From: Thermoplasmata archaeon
Lineage (GTDB): Archaea > Thermoplasmatota > Thermoplasmata > Lutacidiplasmatales > UBA184
NCBI GenBank assembly: GCA_022750435.1
Contig: JAKIVS010000012.1
Coordinates: 1 to 57,737 of the forward strand
DNA length: 57,737 nt
Direction: 5' to 3'
Position 1 is the stretch's first letter, and every line of letters begins with the position of its first letter. Made by a program: the position numbers and the translations under genes. Positions 1-39,102 of this stretch are shown in pieces. The notes under the pieces are model-generated. The model had not been told where the DNA came from. It ran no database searches and saw only the letters and a program-made list of their open reading frames with translations.

Positions 1-51
1 AGCACCCGGCTGATAACCGGGAGGTCGTCGGTTCAAATCCGACTGGGCCCA
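1..51 (+). tRNA. tRNA-Ile (anticodon GAT), 3' part
   Basis: The window opens inside a tRNA. The anticodon stem CCCGG/CCGGG (5-9 with 17-21) encloses the loop CTGATAA, giving anticodon GAT at 12-14, which reads Ile. The T arm is a perfect GTCGG/CCGAC stem (27-31 with 39-43) with loop TTCAAAT. The 3' acceptor strand TGGGCCC ends at 50 with discriminator A at 51. No CCA is encoded, as is common in archaea. The D arm and 5' acceptor strand lie outside the window. Confidence 0.9.
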
Positions 52-14650: not shown

Positions 14651-15601
14651 TCACCGGCGCGGGCGGACACCAGTACTCGCGAGTCGGTAGGATCGGACGA
14701 GGTTCTCTGCGTAGAACGCAGAGAACTTCCAATCTCGGAACGCGGCGGGAATGCGGGAGCTCCGGAGCTCCGCGACGGAACGACTCGCGCGGACCGCCGA
14801 CCGAGCGGCCCGGTCCAACGAACGCAGGTACGACTCGAGCCGTCGCAGGTCGTCCGGGCCCCCGACCGGTCCGTGGCCCGGAAGGGCGACGTCGACCCCC
14901 AAACCGCGAATTCGGCGGAGCATGTCGGCCCAGTCCGCCGGCACCCCGTCGCCGGCGGAGGGGTGGAGACCCACCGACAACAGGTCGCCCAGGAACACGA
15001 CTCCCTCCTCCGGAAGGTAGGCGAAGACGTCGCTCGGGGAATGCCCGCCCCCGTACGAGATCAGCCGTAGCGTCCGACGGGACCCGTGGATACTGAGCTC
15101 CCGCGAGAACGTAATGTCCGGAGACCGAGGCTCGAACCCGGCAGGGACAGCCAACGTCCCCTCAAACCATCCCCTGTAGAGGGCCCGTTCCGCCGGAGGA
15201 ATCTCCGAATCCGGCGCGTCGACCCCCCGGAGCGCGGCTCCCATCGTGCGTCGGTCCCCGGCCCACTGCCGACGACCCCGCGTGTCGATCAGTCGACGAG
15301 TTCGTTCGGTGGAGATGACCGAGGCCGGGGCGAAGGAGGCGTTCCCCCGGATGTGGTCGCCGTGCCAGTGGCTGTTGACCACGAAGTCGGCGGCACGGCC
15401 GGTGCAATGCCGCGCCGCGAGCGCCAGCTCAGCGCCGGCCATAGGCGTGAGCATCGAATCGAACACGACCGTCCGCCCGCCGAGGTCGATGATCGCCGCA
15501 TTGCACAGGGCATACCCACCATCCTCGGCGATCGCGGACCAAACCCCGGGGCCGATCCGGTGGACACGAAAGTGCTTCCCGGAATGAGGAGTCCGTGCCA
15601 T
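14651..15601 (-). CDS. metallo-beta-lactamase-fold hydrolase
   Basis: The protein has 316 residues and the HxHxDH motif as HWHGDH, then a metal-ligand His in YGGGHSPSDVF, an Asp in FLGDLL and a final His in LPGHGPVGG. This set defines a dinuclear-metal MBL-fold hydrolase, closest in pattern to the beta-lactamase-like or quinoprotein-relay SoxH-type group; the substrate is unknown. There is no clear signal peptide. The ATG at 15601 is preferred over the one 18 nt upstream because a TATA-like cttagtag lies about 28 nt before it. Confidence 0.88.
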   Translation of the reverse strand: MARTPHSGKHFRVHRIGPGVWSAIAEDGGYALCNAAIIDLGGRTVVFDSMLTPMAGAELALAARHCTGRAADFVVNSHWHGDHIRGNASFAPASVISTERTRRLIDTRGRRQWAGDRRTMGAALRGVDAPDSEIPPAERALYRGWFEGTLAVPAGFEPRSPDITFSRELSIHGSRRTLRLISYGGGHSPSDVFAYLPEEGVVFLGDLLSVGLHPSAGDGVPADWADMLRRIRGLGVDVALPGHGPVGGPDDLRRLESYLRSLDRAARSAVRASRSVAELRSSRIPAAFRDWKFSAFYAENLVRSYRLASTGVRPRR

Positions 15602-37478: not shown

Positions 37479-38444
37479 TTACGCCGAGTAGTCGTAGAAG
37501 CCGCGACCGGACTTCCGGCCGAGGTGCCCGGCGTCGACGAGCCGCCGGAGCATCGGCGCCGGTCGATACTTTTGGTCCCCGGTCCCGTCGACCAGCGATT
37601 CGGCGACTTCCAGGGTCACGTCGAGCCCGATCAGGTCGGCGAGCTCGAACGGTCCCATCGGGAGCCCCGCCCCGGTCTTCATCGCGAGGTCGATGTCCCG
37701 CGACGACGCGAGCCCTTCCTCCAGGGCGAAGCACGCCTCGTTGAGGATGGGGAGAAGGATCCGGTTGACGACAAACCCCGGCGACTCTTTCACGCGGATC
37801 GGGACGAGGGGATACCGGTGGTTCCGCAGCCCCTGCAGGAAGTCGACCGTCTCCTGGACAACGTCCTCCCGAGTGTCTACGCCGCCCGACACCTCGACGA
37901 GCGGGAGCGTCCCGGGCGGGTTGAAGAAGTGGGTCACGAGGGTCTGCCGGACGTGGCCGAGCCCCTTCGCGAGGCGGGTGACGGAGAGCGAGGAGGTGTT
38001 CGTGCCGATCACCGCATGCTCGGGAAGCTCTTTGTCGAGACGCTCGAGCACCGGACGCTTGACGTCCACGCGCTCGAACACGGCCTCCACGACAAAATCG
38101 ACCGAGGCGAACTCGCCCCAGTCGGTCGTTGGGTGGACCCGCGCAACGACCTCGGCCCCACGGGCCGGGGTGACCTTCGGCGCGAGTCGCCCGCGAAGCG
38201 CGGCGCGCTGCGCCTCGGTCAGCTCGACGCCGAGCGACGCGATTCGCTCCGCCTCCTTGTCGGCCCGCTCCGCGTGGAACCGCACCAGGTCGTCCACGAG
38301 GGTCCGCACGCGGGCCATCCCCCGGTCGACGGCCGGGCGGTCGACATCGATGAGAACGACCGGCAGGTCGTTGAAGGCGAGCACCTCGGCGATGGCCGCT
38401 CCCATCGTGCCCGCCCCGACGACTCCCGCTCGTGCGACGCGCAC
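37479..38444 (-). CDS. 3-hydroxyacyl-CoA dehydrogenase
   Basis: The protein has 321 residues: the Rossmann [14 protein letters not shown] (residues about 8-21), [29 protein letters not shown], the catalytic His in [15 protein letters not shown], then [21 protein letters not shown] and the C-terminal domain ending SGRGFYDYS. This is the FadB/PaaH-type NAD-dependent dehydrogenase of beta-oxidation. The start is taken as GTG 38444, whose [15 protein letters not shown] opening fits the family and which has a TATA-like gttaagta (38479-38486) about 38 nt upstream; a longer frame exists upstream but overlaps the tRNA promoter region. Confidence 0.93.
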
Positions 38445-38511
38445 CGTTCCGACCTCGCGGCGACCACCGCGGGCCCCGTACTTAACGCGCGGCGCGCTCG
38501 GCCTGAACGAA

Positions 38512-38520
38512 CCTTTAAAG
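38512..38520 (+). promoter_or_regulatory. TATA box of tRNA-Ser
   Basis: The stretch cctttaaag is centred about 30 nt before the 5' end of the tRNA at 38546. Confidence 0.6.
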
Positions 38521-38545
38521 AGCGAACCCACCTCGGAGGGCCCGC

Positions 38546-38660
38546 GCGGGGATAGCCCAGCCCGGTAAGGCGCAGGATTGCTAATCCTGTGGTGATTTCA
38601 CCTCGGGGGTTCAAACGGGCGCCGGGACCGACCGGCGGCCGGAAACTCCCCCTCCCCGCG
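38546..38660 (+). tRNA. tRNA-Ser (anticodon GCT) with T-loop intron
   Basis: The acceptor GCGGGGA (38546-38552) pairs perfectly with TCCCCGC (38653-38659), discriminator G. The D arm is GCC/GGC. The anticodon stem CAGGA/TCCTG encloses TTGCTAA (anticodon GCT), and a long variable arm (GGTGATTTCACC, stem-loop) is typical of Ser. The T stem GGGGG (38605-38609) and its partner CCCCC (38648-38652) are separated by 38 nt instead of 7. Removing 31 nt restores the loop TTCAAAT, as in the tRNA-Ile here, giving an 84-nt tRNA. Confidence 0.88.
38616..38646 (+). other. tRNA-Ser intron, about 31 nt, in the T-loop
   Basis: The insert lies between T-loop positions 58-60 (TTCAA or TTCAAA before it, T before the 3' T stem). 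The exact ends can shift by one base (38615-38645 or 38616-38646). Inside, GGCGCCGG and CCGGCGGCC can form a GC-rich hairpin with loop GACCGA and one bulged base, as expected of an archaeal intron presented to the splicing endonuclease. Confidence 0.75.
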
Positions 38661-38712: not shown

Positions 38713-39102
38713 CTAGTCGGTCCGATTGGTAACGATGAACTCGTTCCCATCCGGGTCGGCGACCACGCCCAATACGAATCGGACGCCCGGCAATTCGAGG
38801 ACTCTCGGTTCGTTCGCGATCGTCCCCCCGCGCCGGCGAATCTCCTCGCAGGCCGCCACTGGGTCGGCGTGCCAGAACATGACTCCCGAGACCGTCCCGG
38901 GTTCTCGTCCCCCTTCGCCCGGTCCCTGGACGTGCACGCGGAGGATCGTCGAAGTGCCGGGAAAGGCGAACGTCACGCGGCTCGCCGGCGCGCTGAACGT
39001 CAACTCTCGGAAGCCGAGGACGTCCCGGTAGAAGGTGCGCGCCCGGTCGATGTCCTGGACATGGACGGTGACGGCGTAGAGGCCGGTGATCACTTCGTCC
39101 AT
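38713..39102 (-). CDS. VOC family protein (glyoxalase I-like)
   Basis: The protein has 129 residues. First module: YAVTVHVQDIDRARTFYRDV, with His as a likely metal ligand. Second module: VMFWHADPVAACEEIRRRGG and the VVADPDGNEFIVTN end with Asp/Glu positions. Typical of small glyoxalase/bleomycin-resistance-like proteins whose substrates vary. It is a single gene 11 nt upstream of nothing else on this strand except the DUF35 gene, which ends at 39112, so it may be the last gene of the Hjc/thiolase/DUF35 operon. Confidence 0.85.
   Translation of the reverse strand: MDEVITGLYAVTVHVQDIDRARTFYRDVLGFRELTFSAPASRVTFAFPGTSTILRVHVQGPGEGGREPGTVSGVMFWHADPVAACEEIRRRGGTIANEPRVLELPGVRFVLGVVADPDGNEFIVTNRTD

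What the first reader, a model, noticed from the sequence alone, without database searches (positions are those of the whole stretch)
38546..38660. tRNA-Ser(GCT) interrupted by a ~31-nt intron in the T-loop
Seen: acceptor, D, anticodon and long variable arms are perfect, but the T stem halves GGGGG and CCCCC are 38 nt apart. Deleting about 31 nt (38616-38646) restores a normal TTCAAAT loop. The insert itself can fold as a GC hairpin. Known: archaeal introns outside the canonical position 37/38 occur mainly in Crenarchaeota and relatives with heterotetrameric or broad-specificity splicing endonucleases. Inference: this high-GC, probably euryarchaeal organism would need an endonuclease able to cut there.
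Basis: partly seen in the sequence, partly recalled or inferred. Interest (0 to 1): 0.85.

Follow-up and report, generated by a model that had tools for sequence, protein, structure and literature searches.

The report
T-loop introns throughout a soil archaeon
A transfer-RNA gene of a soil archaeon is interrupted by a 31-base intron in its T loop, and a dozen other tRNA genes found in the same genome carry one at exactly the same place, although the only splicing enzyme detected there is of a kind thought too fussy for unusual introns.

Summary
Window 38546-38660 is a tRNA-Ser(GCT) gene with a 31-nt insert (38616-38646) between T-loop positions 59 and 60; removing it leaves the normal loop TTCAAAT. 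The insert fits a bulge-helix-bulge (BHB) intron: T stem, 3-nt bulge, central helix T54T55C56R57 with the intron's end, 3-nt bulge, hairpin. It occurs in 28 of 36 same-genus relatives searched, with strong covariation. Twelve other tRNA genes of this genome carry an intron at the same site; no intact copy of any of the 13 anticodons was found in the (84% complete) assembly, and His, Asn and Asp have no other detected gene. Nearly the same set recurs in two relatives; a model finds such introns in 41 of 41 same-genus genomes. The organism is a soil Thermoplasmatota archaeon (Lutacidiplasmatales, inferred). Its only detected splicing endonuclease is a two-domain alpha'2 type without the loop (CSL/ASL) linked to relaxed BHBs, so the suggested broad-specificity enzyme is not evident. 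Opposite G57 lies C (21 of 23: four pairs); opposite A57 usually G (three pairs plus A.G, as here). Splicing itself was not observed. Known kind of intron; new lineage and enzyme pairing.

The parts
38546..38660 (+). pre-tRNA-Ser(GCT) gene, interrupted; anticodon GCT at 38580-38582, variable arm stem 38591-38602, discriminator G 38660
   Evidence: direct reading; orthologues L012-L039; uninterrupted orthologues in other families
38546..38615 (+). 5' exon, ends at T-loop position A59
   Evidence: BHB geometry with the cut after the second bulge nucleotide (PMC12397907 section 12)
38616..38646 (+). 31-nt T-loop intron between positions 59 and 60; hairpin 617-618/639-640, G.G mismatch 619/638, 620-625/632-637, loop 626-631
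38647..38660 (+). 3' exon: T60, T stem 3' strand 38648-38652, acceptor 38653-38659, G73
38610..38613 (+). 5' strand of the proposed BHB central helix: T54 T55 C56 A57
38641..38644 (+). 3' strand of the proposed BHB central helix (GGAA, near the intron end): pairs with T54 T55 C56, A57.G mismatch
38614..38616 (+). 5' splice-site bulge A58 A59 | C; inferred cut between 38615 and 38616
   Evidence: geometry; cleavage rule from PMC12397907 section 12
38645..38647 (+). 3' splice-site bulge A C | T60; inferred cut between 38646 and 38647
   Evidence: geometry; same rule
38514..38519 (+). TTTAAA, possible TATA box (-32 to -27 from the tRNA 5' end)
   Evidence: TTA[AT] at -32 to -29 in 29 of 29 Ser(GCT) loci against 7 of 683 control windows (pattern chosen)

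Best explanation
38616-38646 is a BHB intron at position 59/60 of the only detected tRNA-Ser(GCT) gene. The precursor keeps its T stem; T54T55C56R57, nearly invariant in tRNAs, pairs with the intron's 3' end, leaving a 3-nt bulge at each splice site and a GC-rich hairpin beyond. The cell's alpha'2 splicing endonuclease cuts after the second nucleotide of each bulge and RtcB joins the exons, restoring TTCAAAT (enzyme steps inferred). Because the exon side of the helix is almost the same in every tRNA, introns of this design fit many tRNA genes, which may explain why 13-14 tRNAs carry one at the same site. Shown: insert, site, conservation, covariation, no intact copies found, presence of EndA and RtcB genes. 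Inferred: transcription, cutting, ligation, order of processing.
For: Exact excision gives a consensus T loop, the loop seen in uninterrupted orthologues of other families. Same site in 28 of 36 relatives and in 13 genes of this genome. Of 125 candidates found without using the central helix (one a chance hit with no pairs), 122 form all three 54-56 pairs and 2 form two; G57 has C opposite in 21 of 23, A57 in 2 of 101. Helices covary: 12 of 17 pairs changed on both sides, 0 of 500 shuffles; second set 14 of 18 pairs, 1 of 500. No anticodon overlap between 13 interrupted and 23 intact genes; one Ser(GCT) gene per genome, interrupted, in 13 of 13. EndA and RtcB genes present. Conserved box near -31.
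Against: No RNA data. In RNAfold the BHB conformer is not the minimum for 29 of the 33 T arms (it equals the minimum for L167, L170, L171, L174); for the window gene it lies 5.5 kcal/mol above, with P(C56 pair) 0.06, so the central helix may form only on the enzyme, or not at all. The fourth pair is A57.G here, and the literature holds alpha'2 enzymes to canonical BHBs (PMC6379350, PMC4033280, PMC12397907). The assembly is 84% complete, so an intact copy elsewhere is not strictly excluded in this genome. The TATA-like box occurs before only 5 of this genome's 13 T-loop-intron genes.
Confidence: 0.9

Rival explanations
1. The intron is real, but an enzyme other than the alpha'2 EndA (an unrecognised beta subunit or another nuclease) makes or enables the cuts.
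For: PMC6379350 section 5 and PMC4033280 state that alpha'2/alpha2 enzymes do not handle relaxed BHBs; most central helices here lack a standard fourth pair. The genome is 84% complete.
Against: PF01974 finds only the one two-domain gene in this genome; of 29 Thermoplasmata genomes tested, only G038 shows an extra, weak match (E 0.05, below cut-off). Both 3-nt bulges are kept. The Ferroplasma alpha'2 enzyme cuts minimal BHBs (PMC8707768 abstract).
Confidence: 0.07
2. The insert stays in the mature tRNA as an extended T arm.
For: The insert folds into a stable hairpin on the T stem, and RNAfold prefers this to the BHB.
Against: Complementarity of the intron end to 54-56 and the partner of position 57 are conserved, which a retained insert would not need; the T loop could not make the usual D-loop contact (general knowledge); insert sequence diverges while the excised loop stays TTCRAAT; intact loop in other families.
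Confidence: 0.02
3. A decayed or pseudogene tRNA.
For: The finders used here do not report it.
Against: 84-93% identity over the whole interrupted gene across the genus, acceptor and T stems intact in the rows; no other copy found; a promoter-like box is conserved.
Confidence: 0.01
4. An assembly artefact.
For: The genus genomes are multi-contig assemblies and the named relatives are mostly titled MAG.
Against: Same site in many genomes with different insert sequences and compensatory changes.
Confidence: 0.005

Closest known systems
Non-canonical BHB tRNA introns of Crenarchaeota/Thermoproteales (D loop, T loop, acceptor)
   Same: Short BHB introns outside 37/38, several per genome, some genes with more than one (PMC6379350 section 5; PMC4033280 passages)
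   Different: There tied to (alphabeta)2 endonucleases with a CSL; here an alpha'2 enzyme without it, in Thermoplasmatota, with one site, 59/60, used in 13-14 tRNAs (other sites were not surveyed systematically; D-arm inserts were also seen)
Circularly permuted tRNAs joined at 59/60 (Thermofilum pendens, Cyanidioschyzon merolae)
   Same: The junction is the same T-loop position 59/60 (PMC3218864 passage)
   Different: Here 5' and 3' parts are in normal order and the intervening piece is an intron
Korarchaeum cryptofilum alpha2 endonuclease with non-canonical introns
   Same: A single-gene homodimer-type enzyme with non-canonical tRNA introns; described in 2014 as the only such archaeon (PMC4033280)
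   Different: The Korarchaeum enzyme has the specific loop; this one does not
Archaeoglobus fulgidus alpha'2 EndA (2GJW)
   Same: Fold (TM 0.78/0.89); aligned catalytic residues and R280-equivalent arginine; short loop at the CSL site
   Different: Described as limited to canonical BHB substrates (PMC12397907 section 14)

Membership tests
Archaeal BHB tRNA intron | Precise removal restores a consensus tRNA | tested here: met
   TTCAAAT loop, all stems; intact orthologues
Archaeal BHB tRNA intron | Two 3-nt bulges flanking a central helix | tested here: met
   By comparative alignment: complementary segments spaced to leave three nt on each side; RNAfold does not predict it for the window gene
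Archaeal BHB tRNA intron | Central helix of 4 standard base pairs | tested here: inconclusive
   Window gene 3 pairs + A57.G; G57-C in 21 of 23 and A57-T in all 7 f3 and the 1 f2 intron
Archaeal BHB tRNA intron | Excised in vivo by the splicing endonuclease, exons ligated | not testable with these tools
   No RNA data; EndA and RtcB genes present
Canonical tRNA intron | Position 37/38 | tested here: not met
   Insert at 59/60; anticodon arm uninterrupted
Permuted tRNA gene | 3' part of the tRNA encoded upstream of the 5' part | tested here: not met
   Normal order
alpha'2-type splicing endonuclease | One gene with two fused units and catalytic Y, H, K | tested here: met
   Two PF01974 domains; Y291, H299, K330 and R323 invariant in 26 aligned proteins; fold. 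Which residues are catalytic: K and R by alignment to A. fulgidus as named in PMC12397907, Y and H recalled for M. jannaschii
alpha'2-type splicing endonuclease | Homodimeric assembly | not tested
   No complex was modelled
Broad-specificity endonuclease with CSL or ASL | Inserted loop before the catalytic unit's LSL motif | tested here: not met
   No insertion relative to A. fulgidus or M. jannaschii; the 3p1y chimera shows extra residues at that place; same in the printed relatives
Group I self-splicing intron | Catalytic core | tested here: not met
   31 nt only; only tRNA reached Rfam's cut-off in the window

The most novel reading that the evidence does not exclude
In Lutacidiplasmatales and some other Thermoplasmata, loop-less alpha'2 endonucleases process a distinct class of T-loop BHB in which A57.G commonly replaces the fourth central pair. 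If so, the rule that non-canonical tRNA introns need a CSL/ASL-bearing enzyme fails, and splicing must come before every maturation step that reads the T arm.
Probability: 0.55. Interest if true: 0.8.

Novelty: new variant of a known kind. Interest (0 to 1): 0.68.

Why it matters
The accepted picture links non-canonical introns to endonucleases with an added loop ((alphabeta)2 with CSL, epsilon2 with ASL) and holds that euryarchaeal alpha4/alpha2 enzymes cut only canonical BHBs. Here 13 of 36 tRNA genes detected in one genome are interrupted in the T loop, among them the only ones found for three amino acids, the pattern runs through a family of soil archaea, and the enzyme found lacks the loop. 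That makes the rule directly testable with one protein and one RNA. The 59/60 site is also the junction of permuted tRNAs, so such genes could be a precursor state (speculation). In practice, the window gene is missed by both tRNA searches used on the window.

Tried and rejected
Rejected: assembly error, pseudogene, retained insert, group I intron, permuted gene (see rivals and membership). Transposition between tRNAs within the genome was looked at only by eye: introns of different tRNAs share the BHB ends but no evident long sequence identity, so recent copying is neither shown nor excluded. A first promoter pattern hit 11 of 29 loci; the simpler TTA[AT], chosen after seeing those sequences, hits 29 of 29, but only 5 of 13 of this genome's T-loop-intron genes (controls 3 of 325). 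Model R1 scored two G57 introns of G000 at 22-25 bits and a third at 21, near chance, hence R2. Three weak R1 matches in G000 (L173, L175, L176) and one R2 match there (C11:9359, E 0.33; the same place as L176) are not tRNAs. Two weak G017 matches of R2 (L299, L300) gave no tRNA and were dropped. Several ARAGORN calls in G017/G028 were re-read by eye: L306 and L319 as initiator Met with a D-loop insert, L314 as Arg(GCG) with a D-arm insert, L309 as Leu(TAA) with an anticodon intron, L296 as the interrupted Gln(CTG); L312 holds Gly(TCC), whose anticodon my script did not find, next to Ser(TGA). One printed alignment was cut in the middle; I rely on the rows shown. An alignment fitted to R1 (A3) held a few chance matches and was not used.

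Full report
What is there. Window 38546-38660 (+) is a tRNA-Ser(GCT) gene with complete acceptor, D, anticodon and variable arms and a T stem GGGGG/CCCCC whose halves lie 38 nt apart. Taking out 38616-38646 leaves TTCAAAT. ARAGORN and Rfam at its cut-off do not report the gene. The whole stretch folds better than each of 200 dinucleotide shuffles.

Conservation. A search of the own genome plus 60 relatives found the gene nearly full length, insert included, in 28 of 36 same-genus genomes (L012-L039); the other 8 gave no such match. These loci have an insert of 30-35 nt between positions 59 and 60 (L023, not printed there, has the same gene sequence as L022). Insert sequences differ but the structure holds: on 27 sequences (Ser and other tRNAs) 95.2% of cells pair, 12 of 17 pairs show changes on both sides, and the covariation score is 0.454 against at most 0.163 for slid versions, with 0 of 500 shuffles as high. 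Many of these sequences are close relatives, so the shuffle count is not a probability. A second, more diverse set of 33 gives 0.536 against at most 0.173, although 'further pair types' was reached by 3 and 'pairs changed on both sides' by 1 of 500 shuffles.

It is not one gene. A covariance model of the T arm with its intron (R1) found further copies in this genome. With R2 there are 14 matches at E up to 1, of which 13 lie in tRNA genes: Ser(GCT), Leu(TAG), Arg(TCT), His(GTG), Ala(GGC), Asn(GTT), Lys(TTT), Ser(GGA), Glu(CTC), Asp(GTC), Arg(TCG), Gly(TCC), Gln(CTG); the anticodons of Asn and Asp were read by eye. Rfam's tRNA model gives 26 matches in the genome; three are cut-off matches on interrupted genes, the other 23 have intact T loops. 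The 13 interrupted and the 22 intact anticodons (CAT occurs twice) do not overlap. In this 84% complete assembly His, Asn and Asp are found only as interrupted genes. Two better assemblies show almost the same set: G017 14 (these 13 plus Ser(CGA)), G028 13 (Ser(CGA) present, Arg(TCG) not found); among their other tRNA matches I saw no intact duplicate of an interrupted anticodon after re-reading some calls by eye. In 13 of 13 genomes the exon query has one match of 93-100% identity, the interrupted Ser(GCT) gene; weaker ones are 77% matches over 63 nt in G028 and G074, both intact Ser(TGA), and 91% matches over the first 32 nt in six genomes, two of which I read as Leu(TAA).

Distribution. R1 matches at E up to 0.01 occur in 41 of 41 genomes of the genus, own included, and in 78 of 250 of the class sample: 28 of this genus, 17 of other genera of its family, 21 of one other family (f25), and 12 genomes with one match each, which I did not inspect and which may include chance. 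The unmatched genomes shown begin with 'same order', so apparently none of the own family lacked a match (152 unmatched ones are not listed). By my reading f25 introns lie in Lys(TTT), Leu(TAA), a Met/Ile2-type CAT tRNA, initiator Met, Ser(GGA) and a Lys(CTT)-like gene. G038, of another family of the same order, has seven T-loop introns of only 13-14 nt, by my reading in Ser(GCT), Leu(TAA), Arg(CCG), Arg(TCG), Arg(TCT), Gly(TCC) and Glu(CTC). Of the 12 Ser(GCT) genes outside the own family that I read (L040, L060-L064, L066-L068, L071-L073), 11 have an uninterrupted T loop and only G038's is interrupted.

Who it is. The EndA protein's nearest named relatives are Thermoplasmata assemblies, among them Candidatus Lutacidiplasma silvani (85%) and AcS13-54 (91%); contig lengths of G001, G017 and G024 equal those of records in that list. 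I infer the order Lutacidiplasmatales (PMC9287336, passages only; the word 'intron' was not found in that text).

How it works. The intron fits a BHB: T stem; central helix of T54 T55 C56 R57 with the four bases before the last two of the intron; bulges 58-59-i1 and i(-2)-i(-1)-60; then the hairpin. Cleavage between the second and third bulge nucleotide is described for the ARMAN-2 structure (PMC12397907 section 12) and here gives exactly TTCAAAT. In a search of selected loci that used only the T-loop motif, T stem, T60 and acceptor, 125 candidates came out; one is a chance hit, 122 of the other 124 form all three pairs at 54-56 and two form two. Opposite position 57, G57 has C in 21 of 23 and A57 has C in 2 of 101; A57 faces G in 77 of 83 in the own family and T in 7 of 7 in G038 (Fisher p 2e-19, which ignores relatedness). 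So the fourth pair is standard for most G57 introns and a recurring A.G for most A57 introns, the window gene included. RNAfold does not favour the BHB for most: it is 5.5 kcal/mol above the minimum for the window gene and 1.4-8.7 for the other A57 introns; of the six G57 introns it equals the minimum in four (L167, L170, L171, L174), lies 1.0 above in L166 and 2.0 above in L172. RNAfold counts no A.G pair.

The enzyme. One gene, 353 codons, two PF01974 domains. By alignment the catalytic residues are Y291, H299 and K330, with R323 in the place of A. fulgidus R280; all four are invariant in 26 aligned proteins (the Y and H assignment rests on recall). AlphaFold model pLDDT 92 (made on the L081 protein with 25 relatives); nearest folds M. 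kandleri 5x89 and A. fulgidus 2GJW. The broad-specificity loop would lie just before 'LELSL'; the A. fulgidus chimera 3p1y carries extra residues there, the query does not, nor do the printed relatives. All 29 Thermoplasmata genomes tested have the gene. RtcB is present.

Against the literature. PMC4090602 (passages) says Euryarchaeota with alpha4 or alpha2 enzymes have one BHB intron at the canonical position; PMC4033280 (passages) that alpha4/alpha2 enzymes cut only canonical BHBs and that Korarchaeum is the only archaeon with an alpha2 enzyme and non-canonical introns, its enzyme having the loop; PMC3218864 (passages) notes non-canonical introns in three thermophilic euryarchaeal methanogens, and PMC6379350 (section 5) that the A. 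fulgidus enzyme can remove a BHL intron at 37/38 from full-length pre-tRNA. The Ferroplasma alpha'2 enzyme cuts minimal BHBs at 30 C (PMC8707768 abstract and passages). I found no paper describing T-loop introns in Lutacidiplasmatales or other Thermoplasmata in searches of an open-access library, judged mostly from listings; subscription papers and tRNA databases were not searched, and the latter may already list these genes.

What is not shown. No RNA evidence; no cleavage; the position-57 statistics are not independent; anticodon inventories come from incomplete assemblies; the genome search scored only 150 of 7822 first-look candidates in this genome, so 13 is a lower bound.

Noticed in passing
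L162, L253, L261 (Leu TAG); L167, L260, L313 (Lys TTT); L306, L319 (initiator Met); L314 (Arg GCG): Second inserts in the D arm of these tRNA genes. RNAfold shows a 5-bp helix with a 3-nt bulge for Lys(TTT) and initiator Met, not for Leu(TAG), where I read a possible GGCC/GGCC BHB by eye.
   Followed up: partly
L340, L345, L350, L354, L356, L358, L061 (G038): T-loop introns of 13-14 nt with a full four-pair central helix TTCA/TGAA; several of these genes also seem to have D-loop or anticodon inserts.
   Followed up: partly
L326, L327, L328 (f25): tRNA-Lys(TTT) with apparent D-loop, anticodon and T-loop introns in one gene.
   Followed up: partly
L040, L063, L067, L071: A second copy of about the first 22 nt of tRNA-Ser(GCT) starts 78-114 nt upstream of the gene's own in four genomes of four other families. 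Unexplained.
   Followed up: partly
window 15116-15208 (-): ARAGORN reports a tRNA-Leu(cag) that Rfam does not support; G000 has a good Leu(CAG) elsewhere. Probably spurious.
   Followed up: partly
window 1-51: Partial tRNA at the contig start, ending like the tRNA-Ile(GAT) with which contig C28 begins; the end of C17 and the start of C14 likewise share the start of Leu(TAA).
   Followed up: no
window 37479-38531 (-) and 38713-39102 (-): Neighbours match 3-hydroxyacyl-CoA dehydrogenase and the glyoxalase superfamily.
   Followed up: no
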